Under the pieces are notes generated by a model that ran no database searches, was not told the origin of the DNA, and worked only from the letters and a program-made list of their open reading frames with translations. Made by a program: the position numbers and the translations under genes. From NCBI GenBank assembly GCA_033439255.1, contig CM065885.1, positions 620,001-684,000 on the forward strand: a stretch of DNA of 64,000 bases. The letters are read 5' to 3'. Shown here piece after piece: positions 9,202 through 57,302 of the stretch. How positions within the stretch are numbered: position 1 is the stretch's first letter; each line of letters starts with the position of its first letter. Origin of the DNA: Hericium rajendrae (lineage: Eukaryota > Basidiomycota > Agaricomycetes > Russulales > Hericiaceae).

Positions 9202-10670
9202 CTACCGCGCCGCACGCGTACGACGAGTAGGACCGCCACTCACTCCGCTAGTTGTGTCTCTCTTCGTCTTTGAATTCCACCACTTGATATCAGGGGCAGG
9301 GAGATCCAGAGAGACCCCCTTCGACTTTGTAGCGAGCATAAGCCAGCATACCATACGGAATAACGTTGGGTCATCAGGTCCATGAGTCTCCGATATGTAA
9401 AGAGTGTTAGGTTCGTTAGGTTGCGTCGCATAAAAGGAGGTGAGCTCCATAGATGACAATACACCCCAGGAAGCACCCCAGTCCTTAAGCTGAGACCATA
9501 TCTTCAAAGGCGAAGGACTCGCATCAGGGCCAGAGGATTATGAATTAACCGGCGACGCACCTGGACAAGGATCTTATCGCCCTTGCGAGCCCACGACGTG
9601 GATGGCCAGTTGAATTTGTAAGCCCCAGTGGGATGGTCGGGGATAGGACGCTGCACGAGCCACAACGGATTGTCTCCTTCCGCGATGATCTTATGCGTCT
9701 TGTACTCCCCGCAACCTGCGATTGACTCCCGAGGGTGCCTACCACGCAAGATGACGAGGAAGTCGGGTCGCGTCGACCGCTTGTTGTGGGACGAGCAGGA
9801 GAAAGGGTACCTCGGGTCAACATCCTCCGGAATGTGACCGAGAAGAATAGCATGGAGCACTGCGATCGCAGGTCGAACAAGAACACTGTTGATCCAGTCC
9901 TCCGTGTCGACCTCAGAGTTGATTTGTTTCGCATTGTCTATGGCCCTCATCCAAGGAAAGACACGAGCAACAAAGGTCCTGTGGGCATCGTTACCCCAGT
10001 CAATAGCAATGTCCTTCAGAAGAGCAGCGACGTTGCCTTCGACTGGAGACAGCATATCTTTGCAGAACACGATGTATTTTAGCTGTTCGTCTCCAGAAAG
10101 CGCGAGATCGAAGGACTTCGTAGGCTTCCTTGTACCGCTGAGCTTAGACTGGTCGTAGATATCTGGGACGGGTGGCAATGCTGCCCAGACGAGATCAAGT
10201 AGATTGTGTATCCGACTTTCGTCGGGCTTCTCGAAGGGGTGAAGTGGACGATTCAAGTCTGGAGCGGAATCGGGAACAGATTGAACTGGAGAGCCCTCAG
10301 CCGGTTGATCTTGATGATCGAGCGCATCGACGGGAAGATTATTATCGTCCGCTCTCTTCTTGGCCCTCCGTTCAGCTGCGATACGTGTTCTTTCTTCAGG
10401 AGGAGGAACAGGGTGTAACATCTTCATCCCTTCGCGCTGAGGCGATCGTCCGATAAGTCGCCTGTACGCCTGCGAGATGAAGTGCGTTGGAGATGGCTGA
10501 TCGTCAAAGGGATGTCGTTGCGGTCCAGAAGGAAGCCCCGGCGCGAATGTTGTTGCTGCACGGGGTGAGGGTGTCTTCACCGGAGAGACAGGCTCTAAAG
10601 GTGCAGGGGAGGGAGGAAGATCGAACGGATTCTGCGAGTTGCCATGATGCGCAGGACGATGACGAGGCAT
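9202..10670 (-). CDS. P1: PD-(D/E)XK nuclease-like family protein
   Basis: Two exons, 10670-9561 and 9501-9202, with a 59-nt phase-0 intron, give 469 residues. The N-terminal ~150 residues are Pro/Ser-rich and disordered. A conserved block then runs from LLDLVWAALP to the end. It contains SEVDTEDW, then RPDFLVIL, then CGEYKTHK: an upstream acidic residue, a D and an E-x-K about 18 residues apart, the arrangement of the PD-(D/E)XK nuclease fold. Homologues at 18390 and 33580 keep all three. The second exon has the family block SSMELTSFY and DDPTLFRMVCWL. P1 is head-to-head with K1. Nuclease activity is inferred from motifs only; the fold could be catalytically dead. Confidence 0.8.
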
Positions 10671-11289
10671 GATAAATCACAGAAGAGGGTTGAGGATGGG
10701 TAAGGAGTGATAATTGCGTATCGCCATTGAAAGTCCCCAAACTTAAATACGACACAAGAGGCCGCGTTGACTTCGAAGCCGCAAAGAACAAAGCGGCAGC
10801 ATAGTGCACATGGTTCCTGTAAGCACAGCATAATTGTAAGCGCTTCTGAAGTGCTGCAGTACGTACATTAACCCTGCAATGGCGAAGAAGACAAGAGCAC
10901 GGCGATTCTAAGACTCTATATGTGACAGAGTCGTCGACATCCTGCCGTAGATTGAATCGCGAGTTTGCCTAATGAAACCATGCTGGGTCAAATTGCACGA
11001 AGTTTTCGGTAGAACTCACTGATACTCACACATCCGCCTGAACGAAACGAAGATCTATGCTCTGCGCGCAATGACTGCACGGTGCATGCTGCGTACATCA
11101 ACGTGTCAACTTGTCAAAGCGTGCGCCCGATGGAATCTTCGCTTTGACGCGATCACATGCACTGATGCGGTCCAGTCGGGCGCTTGTTGGGCGCTTGTGT
11201 GGCATCTGTTGTTCGAATATCAAGGCGCCGTTTGCGAAAGCTCTCCTCTCTACTCCTGCACTCTGCGTTCTCATCTCGTACAAATTGAA
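10671..11289. promoter_or_regulatory. Divergent promoter region of P1 and K1
   Basis: 619 bp separate the two start codons. It holds GTCAAAGCG at 11113-11121 and its reverse complement CGCTTTGAC at 11140-11148, an inverted pair. CGCTTTGAC recurs in the two other K/P intergenic regions. No gene is seen here. Confidence 0.5.
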
Positions 11290-12343
11290 ATGGCTCTCAA
11301 ACTCACCATCCCCTCCGAAATCAACCGCAACACATCAGAGACATTTACTCTCCGGGATGCTGATGCCAACGCGTCAGGCTCGGCGATCTCGTTCATCGAA
11401 TTTCGCAGCACGCAGCGGATTTGTAGAAACGACCGCGTGAACGTCTACCGCGGCCAACTCACCCTTTCTTCGAATAAGCCTGCGTTGGACGTCGTCTGCA
11501 AAATCGGCTTCGGGAGACAGGCTGTGAATCGTGTCGCAAATGAAGCGCACTTTTACTTAGGGAAGCTCAGTCATCTGCAGGGCGTCTGCATCCCGCCTTG
11601 CCATGGCTACTTCATAGGAAATACCAAGGAGGGGCCGACGTCGTGCATCATCTTGGACTACTGCGGGGAACCGATCGACTCGATGTTCATGCGTTTAGAG
11701 CCGACGTTCAAGTGAGTCCATTGCGACGGCTAGTATGACAGACAACTGATAGGCTCGCAGGACTGCCATCATTCATGCCGCGATTGCGATCCATGACGCT
11801 GACGTGCGGCACGGCGACTTGGAGGAGCGCAACGTGCTCGATTACGAGGGCCTGCCAATGATCATCGATTTCGAGCATGCAGAAGAGTACGAATGCGAGC
11901 GGGCCTTCCATGTTGACGAAGGGCAGCCAGCTCCCATGCCGGATGACTTCGCTTGCGACGAAATCTATGAGCTCTGCCAAGACCTGCGGGTCTGGACGCC
12001 AGGTACGCCAACCGGTGGTTCATCTTGCGCTTTCCCTCAATACGTAGCTAACGCTGTGTTTCAGCCTACATTCAGTACATTCGTACCTATCAGCCGATAT
12101 CCCTGGCGTACGACGCGCACAAGCTTGCCGCGACCGCGCCCAGCCATTGGTCTCCCGAAGAAGCGCTAGCAGAGGCATATCGTGTCATTGTAGAGCACGT
12201 GAAGCGATACTACCCAGAACACTACGATGAATGGAAGGCGAGAATGGGTAAGTGCGCTGTGACGTCTACCCTCATTTTATGCTCATCATTGCTCAGATGC
12301 GAAAACAAAGTTTCGCATCTCTAGCGCGGCCTCGTCGGTTTAA
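11290..12343 (+). CDS. K1: small protein-kinase-like protein
   Basis: Four exons, 11290-11711, 11761-12002, 12065-12247 and 12297-12343, give 297 residues with all phases consistent. The start MALKLTIPSE matches paralogue starts MALILSLP. The N-lobe has VNVYRGQL and LDVVCKIGF (candidate ATP-binding Lys71) and an alpha-C-like Glu85. The C-lobe has RHGDLEERN (Asp160, Asn165), the HGDxxxxN form usual in aminoglycoside/choline kinases, and MIIDFEHA (metal-binding Asp177). The C-terminal block is AYDAHKLAATAPSHW to YYPEHYDEWK. It is the most diverged intact member of the K family and pairs head-to-head with P1. Whether the substrate is a protein or a small molecule is unknown. Confidence 0.85.
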
Positions 12344-13477
12344 GGCCTTTGACATAGCAGATCATGACCCTCGTCTCTCCACTATCTCACGTATTCTTAG
12401 GATCGACCCAGGTAATGATGTATGTACGATCTATGTGCACTATTTCTGTCTTGTATACTTAGCCTATTCCATTTGATACATGCTTCGCATGTCTTGATAT
12501 TGATATCACTGTAGACTTGCTCGATTTGCTGCGGCGTATAGGTCATGACTCAAATTGGACTCACAGCAATAGAGTACTTATGCCGATCTGAAATTGACAC
12601 GTACCCCAGTAGACGAGCATCCATTATTCGCGGACAAGAAGCCTGTTCATCCCGCTTTAACCTCTCTAAATGCAGTCCACAACGAAAAACGCCTTCAATC
12701 CTGAAGCTGAGGGCGTTCGGGAACTAGAAACGTCCGTGTTCGGATTGAAGCTGACGATTTCAATCCGATCTTAAATAAACACCTTCTTAGTCAAAGAGTT
12801 TTCGATCGTTGACTTCCTTGGATCCTTGACTGGATGTCAAAAGCTGCCGATCGTTGAATGTCGGCGGGATCGCCGCGGAATATCCTTCCCTCCTTCCTTC
12901 GGCATTTTCCGGAATTGCGCGAGTGACAGCGAGTTCGGAGTCCTGGAGTCATCTAGTCATCTTCCCGTGTTACCACTACGTCGACCTTGCCTAACCAGTG
13001 AGTGATATCTTGATTGCTTAAACGACATGTATTTTCCTATTATTACTCTTGGGATCTCGGGTTGCAGCACCACCGTCAGACAGACGATCCTGAGGTACGA
13101 AGTGTTGAGTCTCATCTACTCTGCCTCTGGGAGACTAACACACGGCAGCGGTCTTTGCCGTGCTCTGCGCTCACGATTTAAGATTATAGCAGTTGGACGG
13201 TCTCTCCCCGGTAAACACTTTGTCAATACCTGTTCTCACTAGAGTCACGAAATAGCTCATGCGTCCCCTCAGTGACTACTTGACTCGTGTGTATGACGGT
13301 CTCACGCGCCTGCTAGGTGCATTGCAGACCTCTCACGAGATGGTGCCTTACTGTAAATTTGTGTTCCGTACCTTGCGCGCTTCGTGGAACACATAAAAAT
13401 GCTCCTGGTGCGTCTTCATCTGTACAGTCCACTCTCGCCTTCTGACTAGACTGCTCGGCATCAGACACCTTGTTGCG
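12344..13477. other. Intergenic region
   Basis: About 1.1 kb between K1 and the third F-box-like gene. It contains copy B of the dispersed repeat and only short ORFs. Confidence 0.5.
12790..12945. repeat. Dispersed repeat, copy B
   Basis: Shares AGAGTTTTCGATCGTTGACT, GCCGATCGTTGAATGTCGGC and GGCATTTTCCGGA with 4308-4395. Relative to copy A it has insertions after the first and second of these words. Confidence 0.6.
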
Positions 13478-14660
13478 ATGAACTTGCCCGTCGAACTCTT
13501 CAGAGCCGTCACCGATGAAGTCGATTCGGCAACCGACTTGCTCAGCATTCGCGCGACCGCGAAAATGCTCTATTCCATCGCGACGCCACGTGCGTTCCAT
13601 ACCCTACGTGTCAGCAACTCGCTTAAGAGTGCAGAGGGCTTCATGAATCTGCTGCAAGCTGGATGCATCGCTGGATATGTTGTGGAGGTAGTATTTCACG
13701 ATGTCGATTCGGGTGAGTGCGCGTCGCCTGCTTATCGCTAGCTATACTCATCCAGGATATCATACAGAAGCATTTGGCCAGATCGAAGAAGCTGCCATTG
13801 CTCAGCTGGAGACCGCGTTTGGAATGCTAGGTTCCTTGCCAAACCTCTCGACGCTGGCGCTTTCGCTCCATCCCGACTACGATGAAGAGACATTTGAAGA
13901 TGACTTTAAGCCGAGCTCGCGGCTTCTGACGCAATTTGCCATCCTCCGCGGTCTATGCAGCGCATCCGACAAGCTATCCCTCACCTCGTTCAGCATCTTG
14001 AATCTCTTGCCCTACAATCCGGATGACGGATTCTACGAAAGACCGTCATTTGCACGAATCTTTCTTTCGCTTCAGAAGCTGCATATCTCTGTCATAACGG
14101 ACCTACACCACGAGGGCAACTTCCCGCACGAACCCATGATGCCATTCTGGGATAACACGATGCAGCCGGGGATATTCAATCCCTCTGCCGGCTTCGCGCA
14201 GACATTGACTTCGCTCACCCTGGAAGCCGACATTCACCTCGGGGAGTACCCAAGCTTCAATTTTGCCGAGTTGAATTACCCGCGGCTCTCCTCTCTCTCC
14301 TTGACATCCTTTATGTTCGCGGACAGCTCGGGCCTCGAAGACTTCATCATCCGACATAAAGCCACGCTCCGCTACTTGACGCTGAAGCACTCCACGATCC
14401 CGCTTCCTGAAGGTGATGGCGGGCCGTCTAGACATTGGGCGCAAGTCTGGAACTGTTTCGCAGAGGAGTTGACGTCTTTGGAGGAGCTGGTTATAGAACC
14501 CGAGATGGCTACAATGGAAGTTCCGCCGCGTGTGTTGAACTATGCATATTTCGATCCAGGTTGGGGGTACAACTCTCACTCTGACGAGATCCCGGGCGAC
14601 GAGGGGGATGCTGAGGCGCTGGAGGCATTTGAGGCTGTGGTGAAGTCCAGGAAACCATGA
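13478..14660 (+). CDS. F-box-like/leucine-rich protein, member 3 of 3
   Basis: Exons 13478-13712 and 13756-14660, with a 43-nt phase-1 intron (GTGAGT to CCAG), give 379 residues. The N-terminus MNLPVELFRAVTDEVDS with LLSIRATAKMLYSIATPRAF is F-box-like. Later signatures are PMMPFWDNTM, FAQTLTSLTLE, YPRLSSLSLTS, FIIRHKATLRYLTLKHS and WAQVWNCFAEELTSL. It lies between K1 and the K2 pseudogene. The intron position equals that of the two paralogues, so the family spread by duplication of intron-containing genes. Function beyond a probable recognition role is unknown. Confidence 0.85.
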
Positions 14661-15284: not shown

Positions 15285-16255
15285 ATGTCCCTCAAACTCA
15301 CTATCCCGTCAGAACTCTGTCATAAGACATTCGAGACCTACAACCTTTGCAGTACCGATCCAGATGCCGACCCAAATGAACGCGGCCCGAGCGACTCGAG
15401 CGACTCGCCTACCCTCACCTTCGAATTCGACAACAAGCAACGATTTCATGCGAACGAACGTGTCAATGTCTATCGTGGCCACCTGACTCGTTCCCCAGAC
15501 GAGCCTGCATTGGACGTCGTCTGCAAAATCGGGTTCGGGGAACTGGCTGCCAACCGCGTCGAAAACAAAGCGCGCTTCTACTTGCGGAAGCTCAGTGATC
15601 TGCAAGGCGTTTGCATTCCTCCCTGCCATGGGTACGTCATGGGCCATACTCTCGATGATGGCAAAATTACATGCATCGTGCTTGATTTGTACTGCGGAGA
15701 GCCTATCTGACAGAATACTCTACACCTAGAGCCATCTTCCAAGTGAGTTGTTCGGTCTTGGTGGTCGAACAAGCGACTGACGCGTCCGCAGGACTGCTCT
15801 CATCCATGTTGTCATTGCGATCCACGACGCCGGCGTGCGGCATGGCAGTCTGGAGGAACAGAATGTGCTCGACTACAAGGACAGCCGATGTTGATTGTTC
15901 GGAGAATACAGAAGAAGAGAAATGCGAGCGGGCCTACCATGTCGATGAAGGGCAGCCCGCTCCCTTGCAAGAAGATTTCGCGTGCGACGAGATATATGAA
16001 CTATGCATAGATCTCCGGGTCTGGACTTATTTTTTGTTCTGCCTTGTGGTTTTGCTAACGCTGTGTCAGCCTACATTTGATACACCCGTAGCTATCAACC
16101 CATAACCCTGGCTTACGACGCGCACAAGTCTTGCTGACACTGCTCAAAGAGCTGGTCTCCCGACGATGCTCTGGCGGAGGCATATCGTGTCATCATAGAG
16201 CACTGCAAGAAATACTATCCAGAGAAGTATGCTGCCTGAAAGGCGAAGATGGGTG
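15285..16255 (+). pseudogene. K2: dead kinase-like gene
   Basis: The first exon starts MSLKLTIPSE and is closest to K1 (NVYRGHLTRS, LDVVCKIGFG, LQGVCIPPCHGY). A stop follows LYCGEPI at about 15708-15710, where K1 continues. In the second exon (from 15792) the catalytic motif reads RHGSLEEQN, so the Asp is replaced by Ser, and a stop then precedes the place of the IDF metal-binding motif. The third-exon region (about 16065-16255) is still recognisable but carries further breaks. It was probably duplicated from the K1 lineage and has decayed. Confidence 0.85.
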
Positions 16256-16978
16256 AGTGCTTTTGTAGGTATTACAGTCCCGCCGACTCGTCATTGTTAT
16301 ACAGACACAAAATCGAGCAGGTCTCGCTCCGACAGCTCGCCGTTAGTGAACCGCCCTTGACATACCACGTCACATTTGCCTTATCCTGAGCCTGGACACG
16401 GTTATCGTACTGCGAGCCGGTAACAAACTGAGGCGTGAAGTGTAACGTTGACGCCGCACATTCGTGTCAGTATCTTAGAGCTGTCCTCTTTTTCGTATTC
16501 CACTGTGCGATGACCATCTGAAGGTCGTGCGGGCGATGACTCTGAGTGCCTGAGTCCGAGATGCTGAGACCATTATGGCATGCTCGAAAGTCAAGTGGTT
16601 TCCGCGTGTATTTGACAATCAGCCAGACCTTCGCCAGCTGGAAGAAGTGCACAGTCAACCGAAAAGTCCTTCGGACGTCGTGTGTACTCGTGTCCGAGGA
16701 GATATTTGACCTACAGGTCAAATCAGCGTCGGCATTGAGGTGAACAGCATACTTAGCTTACTAGCAACTCGAATTACGCCTTGTCTTTCTGACTGCCGCG
16801 ACACCACGGCTCGCGCTCAGACTTCAAGACTATTACGGGCTCAAGTAGACGGCTTCAGCAACAGTGACAAAATGTTGTTGTATGTGGTATATGTAGCATG
16901 TATATACAGAGCGTGATATAGTACAAAGACATCTATGTGTACACCATGATCAGTTCTCCGACGGTCTCAAAAGATATA
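16256..16978. other. Intergenic region
   Basis: About 0.7 kb between the 3' ends of K2 and K3. Only short chance ORFs are seen. Confidence 0.5.
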
Positions 16979-18059
16979 TCACAGATGTGGCTCGGGGCTG
17001 CTGCTAGGAGATGTTGACGCGGAGTCCGACTCTGCGGCCCTGCGCTTTTTTTTGGCTTGTAGAAAGTCAGCATGGTACGAAAATGAGATTGAAAACAGCA
17101 AGCGGCTCACCAAGGTCAGCTTTCCATTCATCGTATTGCTCAGGATAATGCTTCTTGACGTGTGCAGTGATGACGCGATAGGCTTCTTGCAGAGCCTCTT
17201 TGGGAGACCAATGGCTCGGCGCCGTCCTGGCTAGGGCGTGCGCGTCGAAAGCCAGCCTAATAGGCTGGAAACTGCCCGTGTACCTAATGTAGGCTACGCT
17301 TTGAGGTCAGTGGCTGAAGGAAGGAAGTACAGGGCTAACGCACCGGGAGTCCAGATTCTGAGATCCAGGAAGAACTGATAGAGTTCAACACAGCCGAGTT
17401 CGGCAACCAAAGCAGGTGCTGGTGCTCCTTCCTCGATGGAGATGTGGCGTCCACATTCATGATCCACGGCGTCGTCGAAGTCGATGATTGTTGGAAGGCC
17501 ATTGCGTTCCAAGATATTCCGATGAGCCAGATCGCGGTGTTCCACCCCTGCATCGTGAATGGCAACGAGGGCATAGATGAGACCAGTCCTGCAATTCCTA
17601 AGCATCGATCAACACGAAAGCCAGGATGTATACGCACTTGAACGTGGGTGGCAACCGCATGAGCATCTCCTTGATTGGCTCTCCACAGTATGCCACAAGA
17701 AGGCATCCCGTCGATTCTCCATCTGCATCCCCCACGAAATAGCCATGGCAGATCGGGATATACACGCCTTGCAGATGCCGAAGCTTGCCATTGTACAAGG
17801 ACGCTTCGTGCGCGACGCGATCCTTTGCTTTCTTCCCGAAGCCAATCTTGCATACGACGTCCAAAGGGGGCCCGTCTGACGAGAGCATCAGCTTGCCACG
17901 ATAGACGTCAATCTGGATGCGTCCGGCTGCATGAAGATGCTTCTCGCCACGGAAAGTGGCTTCCGACAGCCAGCTCACGTTGGTATCGAGATTCCGGAGA
18001 GTGAAGGTCTGGAGAGTTTCGAGCGGGTATTCAGTAGGAAGGGACAGGATGAGAGCCAT
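16979..18059 (-). CDS. K3: small protein-kinase-like protein
   Basis: Exons 18059-17638, 17588-17344, 17293-17111 and 17055-16979 (422, 245, 183 and 77 nt) give 308 residues. It starts MALILSLPTEYPLETLQTFT. N-lobe: IDVYRGKL, LDVVCKIGFGKK and HEASLYNGKL. C-lobe: VEHRDLAHRNIL (canonical HRD with Asn) and TIIDFDDA. Then come ELYQFFLDLRIWTPG and AFDAHALARTAPSHW. The tail is short and basic then Ser-rich (KKKRRAAES), a possible nuclear-localisation patch. It is head-to-head with P2, 330 bp apart. Catalytic residues are intact, so activity is plausible but unproven. Confidence 0.87.
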
Positions 18060-18389
18060 ACTGAACGCGATGGTGGGAGAAGAGAAGGAGTCGAACTGCC
18101 TTACATACTATATATAGTTTCCGAAACAATAGGCCACGCGGTCAACACGTGACCGTGATTTGTTCAGATCTTGATCATAGATCGTCCTCGGACAATGAAG
18201 TTCTGAACGGACGTAATTTCTTACTCGCGCTTTGACCTGGACGCGACGCTATGAGTACGCTATGCGACGACATTGTTCTCCTTGCGGATCATTCCTTGAT
18301 CACAAAGCGTAGGATCGTATTTATAGGAGTGTCGAGCGGGTCAGGGAAATCCAAGTGTCTCGCCTGCATCCCTGCTATCACAACAGACC
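18060..18389. promoter_or_regulatory. Divergent promoter of K3 and P2
   Basis: 330 bp between start codons. A TATA-like ACTATATATAG lies near 18107-18117. The K-family block appears as ACAATAGGCCACGCGGTC at about 18126-18143. CGCTTTGAC is at 18228-18236, in the same order seen upstream of K6/P3. Confidence 0.6.
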
Positions 18390-19848
18390 ATGCCGACTCT
18401 GCCAACTGCCAAAGATCCTCGTAAAGAGCGACTTCCGTTCTCTCTTCCATCTGATGAGGTGCCCACGATGCCTACCTCCCCCATACGCTCTCCTCTGCAA
18501 CAACGTCCTCGCCCAGACAGTCCATCAGATGGACCTTCTGGACCGCACCACACGTCGACAAACTTGTCTCCGAGTCCGACGGAACAGGTTGCAGAAGACT
18601 GGCATCGCGCCATAGGTCGTGAGGCACCAAGTCGCGACGGTCAGATGCTATACGAAGGTGTCGCGGATGAGACCCAGGACGTCGAGGAATCTGACGACGA
18701 TGTGGACGACTCTCTCCCTGCTCCTCCGGTCATTGTCGTCGGTAGTCCATCCCAACCCTCCTCCCCATTAGAAGTTGGGCCAGAGCCGGCGCCGTTTGAT
18801 CCACGCCTACTGACCCGCCATGTGTTACCCTATGCAAGATTTGACGAAGTTCAAGACCAGGTGCACACCTTGCTTGATCTCGTCTGGGCTGCTCTGCCTC
18901 AGTCTCCGAAAATCTACGAAACCGGTCAACTCGTAGGAACGAAGGCACCAACGCCGAGAGAGTATGCCATTCCCCAGCCCGATCAATTGAAGAACATCGT
19001 TTACTGCGTGAACATGCTGGCTCCGATTGAAACCGAAGTTGCCGCTCTTCTGCACGCCATTCCATTCGACCGGAACAACCAATCGCACATGCTGTTCGCA
19101 ACCCGTGTGTTTCCATGGTTCACTTCTCGAAATTCTCCGAAGAGAATATATTCAGAGGCCGACACGGAAGACTGGATCCGGGACACCCTCATCGGACCTG
19201 CTCATGCAGTCATGCATGCGTTGGCGCTCGGAGACATCTCTGACGACGTCAGCCCAGCGTATCCGTTCCACTCTTCTGCACACTGCAGATTCATTAATCG
19301 GCCAGACAATATGACGATCCTGGAGGGAGAACATCCCAATGAGGTTATACCTCATATCGGAGAATGGAAGACTCCGGGAGTTATATCCATTGATGACAAC
19401 CCTCTCAGCGCCGTGCAAAAGGCGGTCGAAAACGTTAATCGTGCAGGTGCTGCGTACAAATTTAACTGGCCAAAACCATCCTCGACTATCGCGCAGCGGG
19501 ATAAGATTCTGTGTCAGGTGCGTGACGTCTTCCTCAATGAACGTGCCCAGTCTTGATTCTACATCCCATGCACAGTTATGGTCTCAGTTGTGGGAATGGG
19601 ACGTATGCTATGGAACATTGTCGTCAATGGAGCTCACGTCGTTCTATATGCGGAAGAGACTCAGGAAAAACACGCTCTATATCTCAGAAACCTATGGAAC
19701 GGACGAACCGACGCTGTTTCGTATGATCTGCTGGATTCTACTGGCCACGGGATCGAACGATCTATCTCTGGATGTTCCGCGTGCCTATACAGGCTGGTGG
19801 ACGCCGGCCATGAGGAATGCCAAGAACAACGGCGTCGTCGAGGTATGA
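18390..19848 (+). CDS. P2: PD-(D/E)XK nuclease-like family protein
   Basis: Exons 18390-19517 and 19576-19848, with a 58-nt phase-0 intron, give 466 residues. Residues 1-130 are Pro/Ser/Asp-rich. The conserved domain has LLDLVWAALPQSPKIYE, VFPWFTS, SEADTEDWI (Glu256-Asp261), INRPDNMTILEG (Asp306) and IGEWKTPG (Glu325, Lys327), the expected order for a PD-(D/E)XK core. Exon 2 has LWSQLWEWD, SSMELTSFY and DEPTLFRMICW. The pattern with P1 and P3 is strong, including the CAG/GT splice after DKILCQ. It pairs with K3 in divergent orientation. No enzymatic evidence exists here, and a structural comparison would settle the fold. Confidence 0.82.
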
Positions 19849-20293: not shown

Positions 20294-21384
20294 TCAACTC
20301 ACTGAAACTAGCTCTCCATTTATCATGTCAGTCGGAGGCGTTGGCTTGGAGGTCGGCTCCGCTGCCTTCCGCTTGTTCTCTATTAGTTTAGGTCAATATG
20401 ATACGAGAATGAGATTGAAAACAACAAGCGACTCACTAAGTTTAGCTTTCCAGGCCTCGTATTGCGCAGGATAGTATTCCTTAACATGAGCGGTAATAAC
20501 ACGATACGCCTCTTGAAGTGCTTTATCGTGAGGCCAGTGGCTCGGCGCCGTCTTGGCCAGGGCGTGCGCGTCGAAAGCCAACTTGATAGGCTGGAAACAG
20601 CCCGTGTACATAATGTAGGCTACGCTTCAAGGTCAGTCGCTGAAGAAGGAAGAGAGTAGAGTGACGCGCCAGGAGTCCAGATCCTGAGATCCAGGAAGAA
20701 CTGATACAGCTCAACGCAGCCGAGCTCGCAGGACAAGGAAGGTGCTGGTGCTCCTTCTGCGATGGAGATGTGCCGACCACATGCATGGTCCATGGCGTCA
20801 CCAAAATCAATAACCACCGGAAGCCCATCGCGGTTCAAAATGTTGCGGTGAGCTAAATCGCGGTGTTCCACCCCTGCGTCGTGAATGGCAACAAGGGCAG
20901 AAACGAGGCCGGTCCTGGGATATCTAAGCATGCATAGGTATGAAAAGCAGGATGTTACGCACTTAAATGTGGGCGGTAAACGCATAAACATTTCTCTTAT
21001 TGGCTCTCCACAGTACGCCACAAGAAGGCATCCCGTCAATTCTCCGTCTGCATCCCCTACGAAGTACCCGCGGCAGATCGGGATATACACGCCTTGCAGA
21101 TGGCTGAGCTTGCCATTGTACAAAGCCGCTTCATGCGTGACGCGGTCCTTTGCTTTCTTCCCGAAGCCGATCTTGCATACGACGTCCAAAGGGGGTTTGT
21201 CCGACGAGAGCGTTAGTCTGCCACGATAGACGTCAATCTGGATGCGTCCGGCTGCATGAAGATGCTTCTCGCCATGGAAAGTAGCTTCCGACGGCCAGCA
21301 AACGTTGGTATCGAGATTCCAGAGGGTGTAGGTCTCACGTGTTTCAAGCGGGTACTGAGTAGGAAGGGTCAGAATGAGAGCCAT
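20294..21384 (-). CDS. K4: small protein-kinase-like protein with chimeric tail
   Basis: Exons 21384-20963, 20914-20670, 20619-20437 and 20379-20294 (422, 245, 183 and 86 nt) give 311 residues. It is close to K3: IDVYRGRLTLSSDKPPLDVV, CKIGFGKKAKDRVTHEAALY, VEHRDLAHRNIL, VVIDFGDA and FDAHALAKTAPSHW. The intron after WTPG begins GC instead of the GT found in every paralogue. The fourth exon is basic (KNKRKAAEP), then runs into DNA that matches the end of a K5-like third exon (GATAAATGG..GAGCTAGTTTC), so the tail looks recombined. A further splice at 20300 is possible. Catalytic residues are intact, but the weak GC donor makes expression uncertain. Confidence 0.78.
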
Positions 21385-21439
21385 GTTGAGCGTGAAAGAG
21401 ACGAACCGGAGAGATTAATTGTGCTAAATAATGTGTTCC

Positions 21440-21545
21440 GGAGACAATGGGCTACGCCTCCACAATCCGAACATAACCGTGACAGGGTGAGCTCGAGATC
21501 TTCCATTGTCCTCAGGACACGCTTCCCGCATGAGTCACCGACGAG
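21440..21545 (-). promoter_or_regulatory. Conserved upstream block of K4
   Basis: GGAGACAATGGGCTACGC starts 57 nt from the ATG. It is followed by CATAACCGTGAC and TTGTCCTCAGGACACG. The same order and spacing occur upstream of K5 and K8. The TATA-like GCTAAATAATG lies between block and start. Confidence 0.65.
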
Positions 21546-22828: not shown

Positions 22829-23911
22829 TCAAACGCTGCGAGATTCGGGACTGTCACTAGGAGACGTCGAGGTGGAATCTGGTATGACCCGCGTGGTGCC
22901 TGTCAGTCGAAGATTGGTCAACATTAAGACTGGACCGATAAGATATGATCGGCTCACTGAAACTAGCTCGCCATTTATCGTAGTGCTCAGGATAATAAGT
23001 CTTGACATGTTCGACGATGACACGATTCGCCTCCTGAAGCGCCTCTTCATGCGACCAGTGGCTCGGTGCCATCTTGGCCAGGGTGCGTGCATCGAAAGCG
23101 AATTTGATAGGAAAGGATCTGCCGGTGTATCTGATGAAGGCTATATCTCATAGTTAATGACTGAAAAAAAGGGATAATGAAGCTGACACACCAGGAGTCC
23201 AGATGTCGAGTTTCATGAAGAATTGGTAGAGTTCTCTACAGCCAATCTCCGAGGTCTTTGAAGGTCCTGGTGCTCCTTCCTCGATAGGGACGTGCCGGCC
23301 ACACTCATGCTCCAAGGCGTCTTCGAAATCAATGATCATTGAACCACCATGATAGTCCAGGATATTTCCTCGAGACAGGTCAAGATGCTTCACACCCGCA
23401 TCGTGAATCCCAACGAGAGTATTGACGAGACCGGTCCTGGAAGTCTTTGAGTATACACAGATATGGCTTTTAAAAGGGATACGTACTTGAATGCAGGTGG
23501 CAAATGCATGAGCATGTCTTGTATTGGCTCTCCGCAGTATGTAAGGAGAATGCACGCCGTGGGTCCTTCGCTCGTATACCCCACGAAGTACCCATGGCAA
23601 TGTGGGATGCACTCGCCCTGCAGATGGCTGAGCTTGCCAGTGTACAGAGACGCTTCGTGAGAGATGCGACCCTTCGCAATCGTTCCAAAACCAATCTTGC
23701 AGATGACATCCAGAGGGGCCTTATCCGGTGAGAGATTCAGCTGGCCACGATGGACGTCAATCCGGTAGCGAGTGCCTCCATTGAGACGCTTCAAACCGTG
23801 AAAGCTGATGTCTGACTGTCCTGAGCACGCATTAGTGTCGATGTTGCGAAGGGTGTAAGTCTCAGGAGTTCCACTCGGGTAGAGAGGGGGGAGAGATAGG
23901 GCGAGAGCCAT
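22829..23911 (-). CDS. K5: small protein-kinase-like protein
   Basis: Exons 23911-23487, 23436-23192, 23140-22958 and 22899-22829 (425, 245, 183 and 71 nt) give 307 residues. It starts MALALSLPPLYPSGTPETYT; an in-frame ATG three codons upstream is less likely because paralogues begin MAL. Motifs: IDVHRGQL, LDVICKIGFG, HEASLYTGKL, VKHLDLSRGNIL (HLD in place of HRD, Asp and Asn kept), MIIDFEDA, FDARTLAKMAPSHW and the Ser/Thr-rich tail TSTSPSDSPES. Its nearest relative is K6, with which it also shares the 3' flank. The product is probably an atypical kinase of unknown substrate. Confidence 0.87.
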
Positions 23912-23966
23912 GTGGAACATGGAGGAGACGAACCGGGTAATTAAATTTTGCTAAATAATGTGTTCC

Positions 23967-24075
23967 GGAGACAATGGGCCACGCCTCCGCAATTCAGACG
24001 TAACCGTGACCGGGTGAGCTCGAGATCTTCAATTGTCCTCAGGACACGCTTCTCACATGAGTCACCAACGAGTGG
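23967..24075 (-). promoter_or_regulatory. Conserved upstream block of K5
   Basis: GGAGACAATGGGCCACGC starts 57 nt from the K5 ATG, followed by GTAACCGTGACCGG, ATTGTCCTCAGGACACGCTT and ATGAGTCACC. It is nearly identical to the K4 block and similar to that of K8. Confidence 0.65.
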
Positions 24076-24881
24076 CTCGGCAAGACTCGGGAGCTGATTC
24101 TCCGGAAATCCGTCGATAATAAAGACCAAAACTTACATATTGGACAACAAAGCCAGGATGTGAATCTATCCTTCGAAGAAATCAGGGGCTAGGAGGCCCA
24201 GATAGGGGGCCATTTGTCTCGCAAATGAGATGCGAGTAGGATCCGCGTCAGTGCCATGCAATATTGCAAAAGTTGCAGCGCTGCTGCAAGAGCTCACGAT
24301 GACTGCGACGCACGAAAAGAAGTGATCAGACGTGTAAATTGGTGACTTCAAAGCAAAAGAACAATGCAACGACACGCACATACGGGATGAGGCCAGCCCA
24401 TGCAGCGATCGGTGCATCGTACTGCTCGACTTGAACACTTCTTGTTGTAACGGGGAACGCCAACTCCAAGTTGCATCGTAGGCTTGTTGCAGGCGGTTGA
24501 GTCGAAAGTCAAACAAGCTTCGGCCGGCCGGCCGGCCGGCTGCCGTAGGCGCTTCGGCAACGCGCTTGTGGCGTTACGCGGAAGTCTTTCTTTTCGTACA
24601 CATCCAACCTGTCCTGTCGAAATTTGAAGCTCGAAACTCGAAGCTTGGAGTGGAGGTGAGTTGTCGTTGTGACTGTAATGTAATTGCTTCGATTCTAAAT
24701 CAGATATACAGTGCAGAACGCTTTCAGTCAGCGCAATACTTCGTCTCATTTGGGGAAATCAATCGGCAAGCACTGTCCACAGCGTGTCAGTCACCTCAAC
24801 ACCTGTAAGTCTTGCTTTTCGCGTTTGGGTACTCTATAGTAATCTCCATCTTGCAAGAAAAACTCATATTGTAAAATCACA
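24076..24881. other. Intergenic region between divergent K5 and an F-box gene
   Basis: About 0.8 kb. A simple CCGG tandem repeat lies at about 24523-24541. No gene was found. Confidence 0.5.
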
Positions 24882-27317: not shown

Positions 27318-28420
27318 CTACATAACCGAAACCAAGTCAATGCTGTGAGGTTTGGGGGTGTCACTAGGAGATTTCAAGGCCCAATCTGTTATCGTCGGTG
27401 TGGTATCTGTCAGTCGAAGATCGCGATCAGCGTTACTGTGAGAGCGATAACAATCTAATTAGCTCACTGAAGCTAGCTCTCCAATGATCGTACTCCACGG
27501 GATAGTAAGTCTTGACATGTTCGACGATGACACGATTCGCCTCCTTGAGCGCTTCTTCTTGAGACCAGTGACTCGGCGCTGTCATGGCCAGAGTGCGTGC
27601 GTCGAAAGCGAATTTGATAGGCCAATAATTGTCGATGTACCGAATGAAGGCTACATCTCATAGTCAGCGGCAGGAAAAAGGAGTGGCAGAGCTGACGCAC
27701 CAGGAGTCCAGATTTTGAGATCCAGGAAAAACTGGTAGAGCTCGGGGCAGCCGATCTCCATAATCGCCGAAGGTCCAGGTGCTCCTATCTCGATGTCGAT
27801 GTGACGGCCACAGTCATGATCCTCGGAGTCTTCAAAATCGATGATCATCGGACGACCGTTGTAATCAAGGATATTCCCTGCAGTCAAGTCGAGGTGATTC
27901 AGGCCCGCGTCGTGAATCCCTACGAGAGCATGGATGATGCCGATCCTGGGAGCCTTTGAGTATATTGTACTTCGATTTAGGAAAGGAATACGCACTTAAA
28001 CTTGTCAGGCAGATATCCCAACATCTCTTTTATCGGCTCTCCACAATACGCCAGGACGATGCACCCGGTCAGCCCTTCGACTGTATCCCCCTCGAAGTAC
28101 CCATGGCAGTGTGGGATGCACTCGCCCTGCAGATGGCTGAGCTTGCCAGTGTACATAGATGCTTCGTGCGAGACACGGTCCCTTGCTTTTCTTCCGAAGC
28201 CAATCTTGCAGACGACGTCCAGAGGGGGCTCGTCGGACGAGAGTGTCAACTCGCCACGATAGACGTCAATCCGGTAGAAATCGCTTCCACCAATACGCTT
28301 CAAGCTACGAAAGCTGATGTCCGACGGCGCTGAACACGCATTAGTGTCTCCGTTGCGGAGGATGTAGGTTTCAGGAGTTCCATCCAAATAGAAAGGAGGA
28401 AGAAAGACGGTGAGAGCCAT
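27318..28420 (-). CDS. K6: small protein-kinase-like protein
   Basis: Exons 28420-27996, 27945-27701, 27650-27468 and 27406-27318 (425, 245, 183 and 89 nt) give 313 residues. It starts MALTVFLPPFYLDGTPETYI. Motifs: IDVYRGELTLSSDEPPLDVV, CKIGFGRKARDRVSHEASMY, LNHLDLTAGNIL (HLD, Asp and Asn kept), MIIDFEDS and FDARTLAMTAPSHW. The coding region is intact, but a 4.6-kb hAT-like element sits 57 nt upstream of the ATG, between the gene and its conserved promoter block. Without that element it would be head-to-head with P3. Transcription may therefore be altered. Confidence 0.87.
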
Positions 28421-28765
28421 GTTTGACGCGAAGATGATGGGAGGGAGACGAACGAGGGAAATATAAGCGCTATATAAGCCAGTGTTGTTATTGACCCGGG
28501 TTATAACTAATACGGTCATTTCGAGGTCAATTGATCCTGAATTGACCCCAAATGACCTGGGGTCAGAGCAGTCAAAAAGGTCAGAATGGATTTTATGCCT
28601 GTATCTACCATGCAAACAGCAGTCCATCATCTGCGACCTCAGCTAGATGACCTGCGGACCTCTCAGCATCAGTTGCAACTGACATTGGGGTCACAGGGCT
28701 GTTGCGACGTCGACGATCGGCATCCACGTCCACTATAAGCGCCCATGATCTCGCGAGCTTGAGAG

Positions 28766-29742
28766 CAAGGGGGGTGCGGGATGTTAATCCGGCACCAGGG
28801 GTTGGTTAGTTAGTTAGGGGGTCGACGCTCTTACCAAAAAAATTGCAGCAACCCTATGGTAGGGTCTCAATGCTGATTGCTAGAGAGCATGCACGGTTAG
28901 GCCGATTAGGTGGTGGGCACACGAGCGGGAGGAGGCAGAACGCGAAGGCGTCGAACTAAGCATGCAGCATGATGTCGAGGAGCAGGCTGTTCTGCGGCAC
29001 ATTGATGTGCATGTGAAAGTGCACCATTACTGCATCGAAGAGGCCTGCAAAGCACTGCATGAGATCATACAATGGTCGTACGTCGGGAGGGCTGGACCGA
29101 GCGTGCGGGGAGCACTGAGTCTGAGCAGCTGGGGGCGGTGGTGGGTGAGAGGTGTAGTTCATCGACATGTGCGATCATGAGGAGCGCGTGCCGCAGGATA
29201 TTGGCAGCCTGCACATAGCTCGTGCACCCCACGGGTGTCATCTGGTATATGCACTGCGGAACGGTGTAGCGCTCATCATGCACCTTCAGCTACGAGGTGT
29301 GAGCATGGAGGTGAGGCAAAATGTAAGACTCACGGCTATCCTGAATGCAACCAGTGCTTCGGCAGATGCTATGCTCGAGCAGAGCAGGATTGTGTTTGGC
29401 TCGTCGACTACTGCAGGGGCCAGCAGCTGCGAGTTGAACTCGAACCAGTTGTGTGCAAATGCAATGGGATGCATGCATGCATACAGGGCACCCGTGATAT
29501 AGCATAGGCCACCTGTATGCGCACCGCCGTCGAGCATCACATCCAGAATGAGCGACATGACAAGGTCATGCACAAGAATATTTGTTAGGGAGCAATCGGG
29601 GAGCGCAGCGATGCACATCTTATCTTATCGTATTTCCTTATATGGATATGTGCCTGATTACATATGTAGTTAGTCCAACCCATATTGGCCTTACCAAAAA
29701 AAATGACCATATGTTTTTATTTAACATCCCGCACCCCCCTTG
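28766..29742. mobile_element. Nested 977-bp hAT-like MITE
   Basis: Perfect terminal inverted repeats start CAAGGGGGGTGCGGG and extend 22 bp. Both sides carry the 8-bp duplication CTTGAGAG (28758-28765 and 29743-29750). The termini differ from those of the host element. No ORF above about 115 codons and no transposase motif is present. It is non-autonomous and younger than the element it sits in. Confidence 0.85.
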
Positions 29743-31406
29743 CTTGAGAGTCAAAAATGCGCGGGATCAGAAAACGTCGCGGCCCTCGGCAGCTCCGAAA
29801 ATCATGTGTAGAGTCTTCTATATAATGAACTATAGTGCTCCATGGGTTTCACGTGCTCACGACGCGACATTCTTCCAATTCTGCTCATTCCATGCCGTTT
29901 GGGGCGCGGGCGCTCGGGTTCAGTGGAGGTGATCTTTGCTTCCTGGTGGATAGCTGACCCTGTTGTTTCACATCTGTGTGTCCATTGTTTGTCAGTTTGG
30001 GAGGGGGGCTGAGGATGTGCATGGCATGTGCTGGGCCCGTACGAGGGTCGGATACTTAATCTTAGTCGAGCACTGGGCCCCACGAGCTACATGTATTAAT
30101 GCCTAGAGAGCTGTCATATGCCAGCATACATTGGACAATGATATTAGTCGAGTAAGAGGGTTGAATACACCCAAACTATTCATCAGAAAAATCTGTAAGT
30201 GATACATAGCTCTATATAATCTACATAGATTTCATAGTTCCATAGCACTGCCCTTTTCTCTGTAGCCAGCATAGCTAAAGGGGAATGCTATATAGTGCTA
30301 TGAAGCTGAGGGGCAATGCTATAGAGTGCTATGATAGCTATGATAGCTGACTATGCAGCTACCATAGTATACATAACTATGAGAGCTATAAGTGTCTATC
30401 AAAGCTATAAGACTTATATCACTTATACATTCTATATTCAATATGTAGACTTAGCATATCTATTGAAGCAATCAAGCCTATTGAAACTATAAATTTTGAT
30501 CAAATTCACATAACAAGATCCAAATAAATAATCATACAAACATAAGCTTTATTTAATGCATTAAAATTATATTCATATTATTATACTACTACAAGCAAAA
30601 ACACTATAACACTACTACTAATTACAAATATAAAGCACTATACTTACTACTAAAAGAATAAACAATATGAGTATACTAAACTTATAATGATTACAAAAAG
30701 CGAAAATATAATCTGTAAAGTAGAAGATTAGTTAGTAAATAAGACAACAGTGAGAAGATATAAAAACATACCGAAGATATTATTTATATAAAAAAAAAAG
30801 AATATATAACCGAAGACATGAATAACATTAGCATAAAACAGTAAACATAAAGACGAATGACTTACCGAAGGTTGAGGAGGAGGTTGAAGATGCCGAGGAA
30901 AGTCGGGGGAATGTAGTGGTTGAAGAGAGAGAGAGAACGCGCGTCGTGCGAGGGTTATATAGGTGAGCGCGGGTTTCCCCGGCGGAGCCCCAAATGTGGC
31001 TGCCGGGGCCCGGCCCGGGCATCGCGTCAGAGGCTAAGTGCCAGATTTCAGTAAGTATGCTTCGCTGCCCAGTAGCTTTCAGTACTTTACATGAATATGT
31101 ATCTCACTCGATCGAATTTAATCAATGAGCCCTAGAGGCTCCTTTTTTGTTTAGAATTTATGCGATTTTATTTGATTTGCTAGGCTCGAAAACGTTCTAA
31201 CACGTTCGGTGGCTGAAGCCTCAAACACAGTCGTTCGACTTCGTCTCGAAATCCACTGTCCTCACTCCCATTCCTCCCTCTCAGCCCTTTTCTCTTGTCC
31301 TTTCTCATCACTCTCGTTATTGTCAAGGCTGGATAGGTCGAGCAGGAGTCCGAGGGACTCAGGTGAGTAAAAAACAGTTGTATTCCTTTTACATTGTACT
31401 AATCTT

Positions 31407-31438
31407 GAGAGTCTCGCTCGATAACGAGCGAGACTCTC
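31407..31438. repeat. Perfect hairpin inside the hAT-like element
   Basis: Arms of 14 bp, GAGAGTCTCGCTCG and CGAGCGAGACTCTC, flank an ATAA loop. An identical copy lies at 40495-40526 in the daughter element. A second hairpin with 16-bp arms (15 paired) is at 31844-31877, and at 40932-40965 in the daughter, close to its right end. Confidence 0.8.
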
Positions 31439-33060
31439 GTTCTTATACTCTTCGACACTCCCCGCCCCCCTGCGCGCCCTTCGACAGCCCATTCCGCCCC
31501 TCGCGCACTGCCCGCGCCTGTCTCCCTCCCCGCGCCCGCGCCTTCGACAGGGCACGTCACGCACTCGACAGCCCACTCCCGCGCCGCCGACACGTCACTC
31601 CACGACGTCACCATGAACCCCTGCCTGTTTGCCGCAGCCCGTGGGTGCTTGGACATCCCGGCACGTCACCCACGCGCGGTATCAAATGCCCCATCCCGCG
31701 CACACATCTGCGACAACGGCGGGGGCTCCCACCGGCTCGCGCTCGGCCACCACCATGCACGGGCAATCCTAACACCCGCGCGCAGACACTCCCAACACCC
31801 GCGCACGATGCCTCAAGGCCCGTGGATGGCTAGCAAGGCCAATGTCGAGTCTCGTTGCCACGGCAACGAGGCTCGACTCCAGTCCATTCGTCGCTCGCGC
31901 GGGGCGGGGCCACACGCGCCATTCTCAAGACACCTGCACCCTGCATGTCCTCAATATCGCGGCGGCGGTGCCCCTCCCGCCTTCCACTCCCTCCCAACAC
32001 CACGCAGCTGCCTGCACATGGCCGTGCACGGCCTCACACAGCCTCAACCCCCGCACGGACGCCTTTGTCCGCGCCAGTGCACGCTGGCTCGTTCATGGCC
32101 CCGCTAGCACCTCCGTGCGCATTGCCACGCGCCACTGATCGCAGGCAGCGCACGCACAGATGCAGGCACGCCTGTCCGCGCATGGCTCCAACCGCCCTCG
32201 CACGCCCCCGCCAGTGCATCGGGGCGTGCGCATGATCCCGACTGCCCACGTCTGTCCCCGCCAGCGCACGCCTGCCCGTGCATGCCCTCGCACACGCTGA
32301 ACTGCACGTGCACGGCCATGCACACCATAGACGGCACGCGCACATCCTCGCGCCCCACCCCAGACAGCATGCGCACGCCGGCGCGCGCTTCGGACAGCAT
32401 GTCTCCGATAGCGTGCACACGGCCCCTTCCAGGCTGTACCAGTGCGCGCACGCCTTCGCATGTGCCAGACTGGATGCGCACACTCGTGCATGCCATGTGC
32501 GTGCACGACTGTGCCTGTCCCTGCCAGGGCATATCTGCCCTTGCACATCCCCGACTGTGGCCTACGCCCACGCGAAGTGTGGTCCATGACACTAGTAGTA
32601 AAGCACATTATCTTTGTAGTAGATTAGTTGTCTATGGAACAATATCAGTGTCTTTTTACTTCGAAGTGTCCCTTCTATTTGAGCTGTTATAGGAGCCATA
32701 GGAGCCATAGCAAACTTATTGAAGTTTATAGACTACATAGGCCTCCCTTACATTTACATAGCTTGACATAGCTATGACTTGTAGCTATGCAGGCTATGAT
32801 AGCTTCCATAGCTCTAGATAGTTGTGTCATCTGACTACATAGGACACATAGTACTATAGAACTAGGTATAGCTTTGGCTGGTGGCTATGTAGATTTCACA
32901 TTTTTGAGATGTTGCATCCAGGACCGTCCGCCGCTCTCTGACCTACCGGTGGGACTGACCCCACTGACCCCTCGAAATTCGGTCCCCGAATTGACTGACC
33001 GACTGACCGGTTATAACCCCGTCAAGTCAAATGGGTTTTGACAGGTCAGTAACAACACTG

Positions 33061-33579
33061 ATATAAGCTGCCAGGAATGTGGAGACAAAGGGCCACGCGG
33101 TTCACACATGAGCGCGATCTTGTTGAGATCGTCTATTATCCACAGAACACGTTGTCAACACACTGCAGTCGCGCTTTGACCGCGCTTTGACATTGATCCG
33201 ATCTTCGCATCATGTTCGATTATCAGGTTATTGTCCCCATTCCCAGGTCTCAGCCTGAATGGCGCAAGACAATGAGCTATATAGGAGTGCGACGGCAACC
33301 TGGTAAGTGCTATCAAAGAAACACCATCGTGTTTTGTCAATGCTGACCCACCGCGGCGGCTGGTGGGTGCGTATACACTTGATAGATTTTGCTTCAATCA
33401 TGGCCTTGTGGACTTTGCTGTGAGTTTTTAGCCTTGTGGTCGCGCTTTGTGCATTGTTCCCCGCATGGATCGTGCCTTACTTGCAATGCGTAAAATCGTA
33501 TTTAATATGGGCATCGAGGCGGGTTGGGCAGTCCTTAGTCCCTAGTCCCTCGTCTTCCCTGCTGTTGTCACCATAGACG
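33061..33579. promoter_or_regulatory. Displaced K6/P3 divergent promoter
   Basis: Right of the hAT element the K-family block GGAGACAAAGGGCCACGCGG appears at 33081-33100, now 4.6 kb from the K6 ATG. CGCTTTGAC occurs twice in tandem (33172-33180 and 33183-33191), as in the K3/P2 promoter. A TATA-like GCTATATAGG near 33274 may serve P3. Confidence 0.6.
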
Positions 33580-35190
33580 ATGTCTGACCCACCGGCCACA
33601 CCGGCCTCCCCTGCTTTTTGCTTCGTGATTGCACCTGGGGAAGTGCCAACACTCCCCGTCACCCCCGGACGCTCGACTGCAGGCCGCTCACCGGCTGCGC
33701 CTACTAATTTGAGCCCGTCGCCTATGGACATATCTCCGACGCCACCAGTTGCAGCCCCCAGACGCTCGGGTACAGGCCGCCCGTCGCCGATGAACCTATC
33801 TCCAACGGTACCAGTTGCAGCGGAATGGCAGCGTGTTACAGGCCGGGCGGCGCCCCATCGAGATGATCAAATGCTGCACGAAGGTGTCACGGACAATGTT
33901 CAGAACATCCAGGAATCCCGTGATGGTGTAGACGATCCATTTCGCCCTCGTTCGGTCGTTATCGTTGACGTGGAAGACGCGCATGCACGCTCCCCATCTC
34001 TGGCCTCCACCCTGTCTTCGCTACCTTCCTCGGTGCGTCTACCTTCATCTTCGTCTATACCTTCCATCCTTAACTTCGGACCCAAGATAGAGCCATTTCA
34101 TCCAGATCTCCTATCCCGTCCTCTGATCCCTTTTGGAAAGTTCGACGGCGCAGTGCGGAACCGGATTTGGACCCCGCTTGACCTCGTATGGGCTGCTCTG
34201 CCTCTGTCTCCTGCTATCTATGATCGAAAGCAACTCAAAGGGACAAGGGGGCCAACTGCATCGGAATACCTGATCCCTCCATCCAAGTCTCTGGAAAAGG
34301 TTGTCTATTGCGGGGAAATGTTGGCTCCAATCGAACCTAAAGTTGCAGCCATTCTTCATGCCATTCCAATAGACTGGAACAATGATGCGCACATGTTGTT
34401 TGCGGCGCGCGTGTTCCCATGGCTTACTTCTCTAGACTGTCCCAAACGAATTTACTCGGAGGTTGATACCGAAGACTGGATCCGGGAGACGCTCATGGGA
34501 CCTGCGCATGCAGTCATACACGCTGTGCTCCTCGGACGCATCCCTGAAGATGCCAACCCAATGTATCCGTTCCATTCCTCTGCGCACAACAGATTCCACA
34601 ATAGGCCAGACAATGTGACGACGCTGCGGGGAGAGCATCCTCACGAGACTGTCTCGCACGTCAGAGAGTGGAAGACAAAGGCTGTTATCCCCATTATCAG
34701 CAATCCCTTGCAACTCATTGCAAGGCCCATCCTAGGCGTCACAAATCCAGGAGCTGCCATACGCTTTAACTGGCCTAAGTCACCCTCTTCACTCTTTGCG
34801 GAGCGGGACAAGATCTTGTGCCAGGTTGGTAGCCTCTTTCTATAAACCAATTTGTCTCATTCTGATTTCACCGTGCTTGCACAGATATGGTGTCAGCTTA
34901 TGGAATGGGACGTCTTTTGTGGAACTTTATCGTCCATGGACGTCACAACCTTCTACATGAGGTCAAGATACGACGACAACGCACTCTACGTGTCGAAATT
35001 CAATACAACGGAGACGGACAGCCCGACCCTTTTTCGGATGGTTTGCTGGCTTCTGGTCTCCATGGAATACAAGGGCATGTTGTTGGACGTCCTGGCTGCC
35101 CGCGATGACTGGTGGACTCCAGAGATCAGGAATGACAGAAACCCGGGCATGGTTGAGAGAATGCTGATGGATCTGCCAGTGGTCCGCTGA
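33580..35190 (+). CDS. P3: PD-(D/E)XK nuclease-like family protein
   Basis: Exons 33580-34824 and 34885-35190, with a 60-nt phase-0 intron, give 516 residues. It has a longer Pro/Ser-rich N-terminus than P1 and P2, with an internal repeat (SPTPPVAAPRRSGTGR-like). The conserved domain has LDLVWAALPLSPAIYD, VFPWLTS, SEVDTEDWIRETLMG, HNRPDNVTTLRG and VREWKTKA. Here the E-x-K is preceded by R rather than G, but E, D, E and K positions are kept. Exon 2 has IWCQLMEWD, SSMDVTTFY and DSPTLFRMVCWLL. It is flanked by two hAT-like elements and is the natural divergent partner of K6. Confidence 0.82.
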
Positions 35191-48967: not shown

Positions 48968-49016
48968 GTGCGCCAGCTCTACCACTTTTCCTTCCGACCG
49001 CTCTCGCGTAGTAGCC

Positions 49017-57245: not shown

Positions 57246-57302
57246 GTTGATGCGATGACAGTGGGGAGGGAAAGGTTGAACGGGCGAGATAAAGCATGTC
57301 CA

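What the first reader, a model, noticed from the sequence alone, without database searches (positions are those of the whole stretch)
9202..35190. Recurrent divergent kinase-like / nuclease-like gene pair (K/P module)
Three times in 26 kb a P-family gene lies head-to-head with a K-family gene: P1/K1 (619 bp apart), K3/P2 (330 bp) and K6/P3 (about 570 bp once the inserted hAT element is discounted). Each family also differs in sequence between pairs, so this is not one fresh tandem copy. Repeated preservation of orientation suggests co-expression and joint function. I know of no described fungal system with this pairing. A conflict, self-recognition or genome-defence role is inference, supported only by the nuclease-like motifs, kinase-like fold and rapid gene turnover nearby.
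Basis: partly seen in the sequence, partly recalled or inferred. Interest (0 to 1): 0.88.

Follow-up and report, generated by a model that had tools for sequence, protein, structure and literature searches.

The report
Split nuclease and kinase gene pairs
In what looks like fungal DNA, three copies of a possible DNA-cutting gene each sit back to back with a kinase-like gene, an arrangement that resembles, in two separate genes, the fused killer-and-antidote proteins of known fungal spore killers, though its function is untested.

Summary
Spliced models give three head-to-head P/K pairs: P1/K1 619 bp apart, K3/P2 330 bp, and K6/P3 570 bp once a 4,581-bp hAT-like element (28480-33060, duplication ATATAAGC) is left out. 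All six genes are open. K is a small eukaryotic-like kinase with its catalytic residues kept. P carries an invariant PD-x18-E-x-K motif with a downstream Q, spaced almost as in the SPOK nuclease, but has no profile match and its AlphaFold model failed, so "nuclease" is inference. The pairs are not independent: the K3-P2 and K6-P3 promoters share collinear blocks on both sides, so these two descend from one ancestral pair. Five further K copies (two dead) have no P; no P here lacks a K. The pairing has precedent: SPOK spore killers and Crinkler-type effectors fuse such a nuclease to a kinase in one protein. My reading is a two-gene version of that conflict module, P harmful and K protective; plain local duplication explains the layout about as well. 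No fungal collection was open to me, so adjacency elsewhere is untested. New variant of a known kind, moderate interest.

The parts
9202..10670 (-). P1, possible PD-(D/E)XK protein, 469 aa, 2 exons (10670-9561, 9501-9202)
10671..11289 (.). P1/K1 divergent intergenic region, 619 bp; no similarity to the other two found
11290..12476 (+). K1, small eukaryotic-like kinase, catalytic loop HGDLEERNVL, DFE; fourth exon uncertain
15285..16257 (+). K2 pseudogene (early stop, catalytic Asp replaced: HGS); no P beside it; groups with K1
16979..18059 (-). K3, kinase-like, 308 aa, 4 exons, basic tail KKKRRAAES
18060..18389 (.). K3/P2 divergent intergenic region, 330 bp, with K-side block (18107-18191) and P-side block
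18390..19848 (+). P2, 466 aa, 2 exons (18390-19517, 19576-19848)
20294..21384 (-). K4, unpaired open K (second intron GC-AG), groups with K3
22829..23911 (-). K5, unpaired open K, groups with K6
27318..28420 (-). K6, kinase-like, 313 aa, catalytic loop HLDLTAGNIL
28480..33060 (.). hAT-like element by its ends only (no transposase domain found in the ORFs scanned), 4581 bp, duplication ATATAAGC (28472-28479, 33061-33068), ends CAGTGTTGTTA; inserted just upstream of K6
33081..33160 (-). K-side promoter block of K6, now separated from K6 by the element and next to P3
33580..35190 (+). P3, 516 aa, 2 exons (33580-34824, 34885-35190)
48291..48969 (+). K7, truncated pseudogene (first ~28 residues and third exon not found), unpaired
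56235..57245 (-). K8, unpaired open K

Best explanation
An ancestral head-to-head pair of a PD-(D/E)XK-type nuclease gene (P) and a small eukaryotic-like kinase gene (K) was duplicated within this cluster, and K also multiplied alone. Shown: the gene structures, the divergent pairs, shared promoter halves of two pairs, kept kinase residues, the invariant PD-x18-ExK motif, purifying selection where it could be measured. Inferred: that P is an active nuclease, that K acts on P or on P's target, and that the two form a two-gene toxin/antidote-like conflict module, P damaging nuclear DNA and K blocking it by phosphorylation, as the nuclease and kinase domains of SPOK do inside one protein.
For: 3 of 3 P genes have a head-to-head K. 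K3-P2 and emptied K6-P3 intergenic regions share collinear K-side (49 columns, 80%, E 2e-7) and P-side (73 columns, 73%, E 9e-6) segments; the K-side block scores 19.2 bits at K3 and 26.4 beside P3 against at most 5.6 in 20 block-shuffled windows. Synonymous distances are similar: P2-P3 1.29, K3-K6 0.97; P1 and K1 are the most distant members of their families. Omega is 0.14-0.32 in the 13 of 18 within-family comparisons that were not saturated; both P1 comparisons were saturated. Six of six open K keep the beta-3 Lys, the H-x-D loop with its Asn, and the DF motif; with E up to 1, 6 of 6 match the Kdo kinase model (best E 5.5e-4) and 5 of 6 Bud32, while the best-scoring family is the protein kinase AfsK (6 of 6, best E 6e-5). 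The SPOK paper compares its kinase with Kdo kinase. P: invariant PD-x18-E-x-K in 3 of 3, P-to-K span 23 against 22 in SPOK3, then Q 46-50 residues on against 54; 60 of 20,000 column shuffles give such an invariant motif. In this window K occurs without P (5 of 8, two of them dead) and P never without K (0 of 3), the asymmetry expected of antidote and toxin; PMC12693581 mentions SPOK versions with only the antidote working and predicted antidote-only wtf genes.
Against: No Pfam, NCBIfam or PADLOC match for 3 of 3 P up to E 10, none in PDB sequences; the P model has mean pLDDT 35. The Y of SPOK's QxxxY is Q in P, and the SPOK Cys/His cluster is absent. A looser acidic...[DE]xK motif arises in 1,953 of 20,000 shuffles. 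Three P and eight K in one window cannot separate function from local duplication. The hAT insertion has cut K6 from its conserved upstream block while P3 stayed open, which a strictly needed antidote would not tolerate unless other K cover for it. No expression or activity data.
Confidence: 0.36

Rival explanations
1. Ordinary local expansion. K, P and F-box genes are multicopy families that share a fast-duplicating region; an old P-K neighbourhood was copied by segmental duplication and not broken because the two share a short promoter. No joint function.
For: Pair arrangement is inherited for at least K3-P2 and K6-P3; K also duplicates alone and dies (K2, K7); F-box genes and their relatives are interspersed; mobile elements are present.
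Against: Every P in the window has a head-to-head K, and both genes of each pair stayed open; for K3-P2 and K6-P3 over a synonymous distance near or above 1.
Confidence: 0.4
2. P is a nuclease regulated by K in a host defence or nonself-recognition pathway (against mobile elements or after hyphal fusion), not a selfish toxin/antidote.
For: Same anatomy; P N-termini hold more SP/TP sites than shuffles in P1 (p 0.023) and P3 (p 0.006), not in P2 (p 0.15), so phosphoregulation is possible. K's best PADLOC matches are weak hits to bacterial defence kinases such as PD-T4-6 (3 of 6 members, best E 1e-5), probably through the shared kinase core.
Against: No Pfam-recognisable sensor or other domain in P or K; SP/TP sites are targets of proline-directed kinases, and K is not shown to be one.
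Confidence: 0.12
3. P is not a nuclease: the PD-x18-ExK motif is a coincidence of two conserved patches, and P is an unrelated or degenerate protein.
For: No profile support, poor model; the looser motif arises in 1,953 of 20,000 column shuffles.
Against: The strict motif arises in 60 of 20,000 shuffles, with spacing close to that of SPOK3 including the downstream Q.
Confidence: 0.12

Closest known systems
SPOK spore-killer proteins of Podospora and Fusarium (PMC6660238: passages and section 17; PMC9972908 and PMC12693581: passages)
   Same: PD-(D/E)XK-type motif with almost the same spacing and a downstream Q; eukaryotic-like kinase compared with Kdo kinase; multicopy, with dead copies and versions in which only the antidote works
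   Different: SPOK is one polypeptide with a coiled coil and a Cys/His cluster; here two divergent genes without that cluster and with QxWxQ. No SPOK sequence was available, so homology was not tested; killing untested
REase-kinase Crinkler (CR) effectors (PMC5289972: passages; Zhang et al. 2016 itself not held)
   Same: Restriction-type nuclease paired with a protein kinase, nuclease thought toxic and kinase regulatory
   Different: Fused, with an N-terminal header thought to serve secretion; P matches no Pfam family
Fungal-type kinase FunK1 (PF17667; name and accession recalled)
   Same: Multicopy fungal kinase family (recalled)
   Different: Not among the families matched by the 6 K up to E 10

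Membership tests
SPOK | PD-(D/E)XK nuclease domain with catalytic Lys | tested here: inconclusive
   Invariant PD-x18-E-x-K in 3 of 3 P; no profile match, pLDDT 35
SPOK | QxxxY motif downstream | tested here: not met
   QxWxQ in 3 of 3 P
SPOK | Eukaryotic-like kinase with catalytic Asp | tested here: met
   H-x-D loop in 6 of 6 open K; weak kinase-superfamily hits below cut-offs
SPOK | Nuclease and kinase in one polypeptide | tested here: not met
   Two divergent genes
SPOK | Cys/His cluster C-x3-C-x13-C-x5-H-x7-H | tested here: not met
   Absent in 9 of 9 models, also in a looser form
SPOK | N-terminal coiled coil | not tested
   No coiled-coil program was run
SPOK | Kills cells or spores that lack the gene | not testable with these tools
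   Needs an assay
Crinkler (CR) effectors | N-terminal Crinkler header | tested here: not met
   0 of 3 P match any Pfam family up to E 10; profile only, a divergent header would be missed
FunK1 (PF17667) | Profile match | tested here: not met
   Not among the 7 families matched by 6 K
Protein kinase (Pfam PF00069) | Pkinase profile above gathering score | tested here: not met
   17.3 bits against 31.7 for K3; 5 of 6 K match, best E 5.9e-4. The 50 Foldseek hits shown are kinases, but TM is near 0.23 and the K8 model, with two introns read through, has pLDDT 53

The most novel reading that the evidence does not exclude
A two-gene, head-to-head nuclease/kinase killer-antidote system of a basidiomycete: a split counterpart of SPOK, in which the antidote kinase also spreads alone as resistance-only copies, giving a molecular candidate for toxin/antidote drive in mushroom-forming fungi.
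Probability: 0.15. Interest if true: 0.85.

Novelty: new variant of a known kind. Interest (0 to 1): 0.5.

Why it matters
In SPOK the killing and protecting functions sit in one protein, and how the kinase protects is unknown (PMC9972908, PMC12693581, passages). Separate genes would let each activity be expressed, removed and titrated alone, so the question of how a kinase neutralises a nuclease toxin would become directly testable. It would also extend nuclease/kinase conflict modules to divergent gene pairs.

Tried and rejected
Rejected: (1) My doubt of the 570-bp claim. (2) My idea that paired K genes had lost the promoter of unpaired K genes and so were paired independently: searches found that block at K3 and, displaced, beside P3. 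(3) FunK1: no match. (4) P/K as one mobile cassette: around P1/K1 and K3/P2 only short repeats (14-24 nt) turned up, none that frames a pair; K6/P3 was not examined this way.

Led nowhere: scans of viral contigs and of bacterial and archaeal genomes found no relative of K or P, nor did phages (K3 only); by their descriptions these collections hold no fungal genomes. The plasmid and E. coli collections and PHROGs were not searched. Structure models were poor (K8 pLDDT 53, P3 35), so P was not sent to fold search. Nine literature searches showed, in their listings (titles, abstract starts), no paper that I recognised as a two-gene nuclease/kinase pair; several showed only the best 12-25 of the papers found, so this is not a claim of absence. 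Passages of PMC8893723 added nothing on K or P.

Full report
What was checked. The window lies in no genome held here, and the collections that could be scanned hold no fungi by their descriptions, so the work is on the window itself plus curated profiles and papers. Splicing gives six open K genes and three open P genes, with introns of 48-62 bp except one of 110 bp in K1, and GT-AG ends except one GC-AG in K4; the fourth exon of K1 is uncertain. Two more K are dead or truncated. tblastn with the nine models finds no further P or K in the window at E 0.05.

The pairs. P1 and K1 start 619 bp apart, K3 and P2 330 bp. Between K6 and P3 lie 5,159 bp, of which 28480-33060 is an element with an exact 8-bp target duplication and inverted ends identical over 11 bases (16 of the first 17); without it the gap is 570 bp. 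It is called hAT-like from these ends; seven open frames from this stretch gave no transposase domain. On a 21-gene list labelled by hand, 3 of 3 head-to-head pairs occur in 0.5% of 200,000 shuffles of order and orientation and in 3.1% when only orientation varies.

Origin of the pairs. The upstream block shared by K4, K5 and K8 is also found at K3 (18107-18191, 19.2 bits) and, displaced by the element, at 33081-33160 beside P3 (26.4 bits); the best score in 20 block-shuffled windows is 5.6. The K3-P2 and emptied K6-P3 regions share a K-side and a P-side segment in the same order. These two pairs are therefore most simply copies of one divergent pair. The K1-P1 region could not be aligned with either. 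The K tree groups K1 with K2 (one exon only), K3 with K4, and K5 with K6, all with strong support, and leaves K7 and K8 open. P1 and K1 are the most distant in their families. With three pairs the two trees cannot be compared further. How K4, K5 and K8 came to lack a P is open: no trace of the P-side block lies upstream of them.

K. Six of six open K keep the beta-3 lysine, the H-x-D catalytic loop with its asparagine, and D-F-[EDG]. Profile hits are weak and below curated cut-offs: Pkinase in 5 of 6, RIO 5 of 6, APH 3 of 6, TCAD9 3 of 6; AfsK and Kdo kinase 6 of 6, Bud32 5 of 6; bacterial defence kinases such as PD-T4-6 in 3 of 6. PDB sequences: best E 0.0065, a kinase. The model of K8, which carries two read-through introns, has pLDDT 53, and the 50 Foldseek hits shown are kinases with TM near 0.23. 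K is best called a eukaryotic-like kinase; its substrate is unknown.

P. A 157-199 residue Pro/Ser-rich N-terminus precedes a conserved core of 305-317 residues. In 3 of 3 an invariant PD-x18-E-x-K is followed 46-50 residues later by Q in QxWxQ. SPOK3 has its motif at 219-240 and QxxxY at 294-298. Column shuffles of the 302 ungapped core columns reproduce an invariant PD...[DE]xK in 60 of 20,000, a looser acidic...[DE]xK in 1,953. No profile library searched and no PDB sequence matches, and the model failed. Nuclease is thus a reasoned inference, not shown.

Selection and turnover. Omega is 0.14-0.32 in 13 of 18 within-family comparisons; the other five, both of P1's among them, are saturated. 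Paired K: 3 of 3 open. Unpaired K: 3 of 5 open. P: 3 of 3 open and 3 of 3 paired. The numbers are too small for a test, but the asymmetry is the one expected of an antidote that can live alone and a toxin that cannot.

Mechanism. In SPOK, the nuclease domain kills and the kinase domain protects (PMC6660238), killing is reported to act on DNA (PMC9972908), and the nuclease/kinase architecture is said to be widespread (PMC12693581); in CR effectors the nuclease is thought toxic and the kinase regulatory (PMC5289972). I saw passages of these papers, and section 17 of the first. By analogy P would attack DNA and K would shield it or silence P. This is inference from anatomy. Against it stands that K6 has lost contact with its promoter block while P3 is open, and that simple local expansion explains the layout about as well; I rate the two close to equal.

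Verdict. Observation confirmed, interpretation partly supported; a new variant (two genes instead of one) of a known kind (nuclease plus kinase conflict module), if function bears it out.

Noticed in passing
28766-29742; 28760-31882 and 37848-40970: A 977-bp nested element (ends CAAGGGGGG, duplication CTTGAGAG) lies inside the hAT-like element; a 3.1-kb stretch from its left end recurs 99.8% identical at 37848-40970, where 8-bp words TGTGCGAA stand on both sides, as if one end had mobilised flanking DNA.
   Followed up: partly
21385-21644 and 23912-24171: Upstream DNA of K4 and K5 is 81% identical over 260 bp although the proteins are only 61% identical and group with different sisters: strong promoter constraint or gene conversion.
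   Followed up: partly
21385-21644, 23912-24171, 57246-57509: The upstream block shared by K4, K5 and K8 holds a near-palindrome TGTCCTGAGGACA and a TGACTCA site in K4 and K5, with close variants in K8: candidate regulator sites.
   Followed up: no
5143-6460, 7488-8831, 13397-14660, 24902-26677, 51239-53188: F-box genes among the K and P: the gene at 5143 passes the F-box cut-off, those at 7488 and 13397 are its relatives by blastp but do not pass it, and the last two pass F-box-like.
   Followed up: partly
44001-46000: GC content 72% against 54-59% in the neighbouring 2-kb steps, with an 868-aa open frame on the minus strand and no Pfam match.
   Followed up: no
54546-55460: SLAC1-type anion channel exon (Pfam E 1.2e-40).
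   Followed up: no
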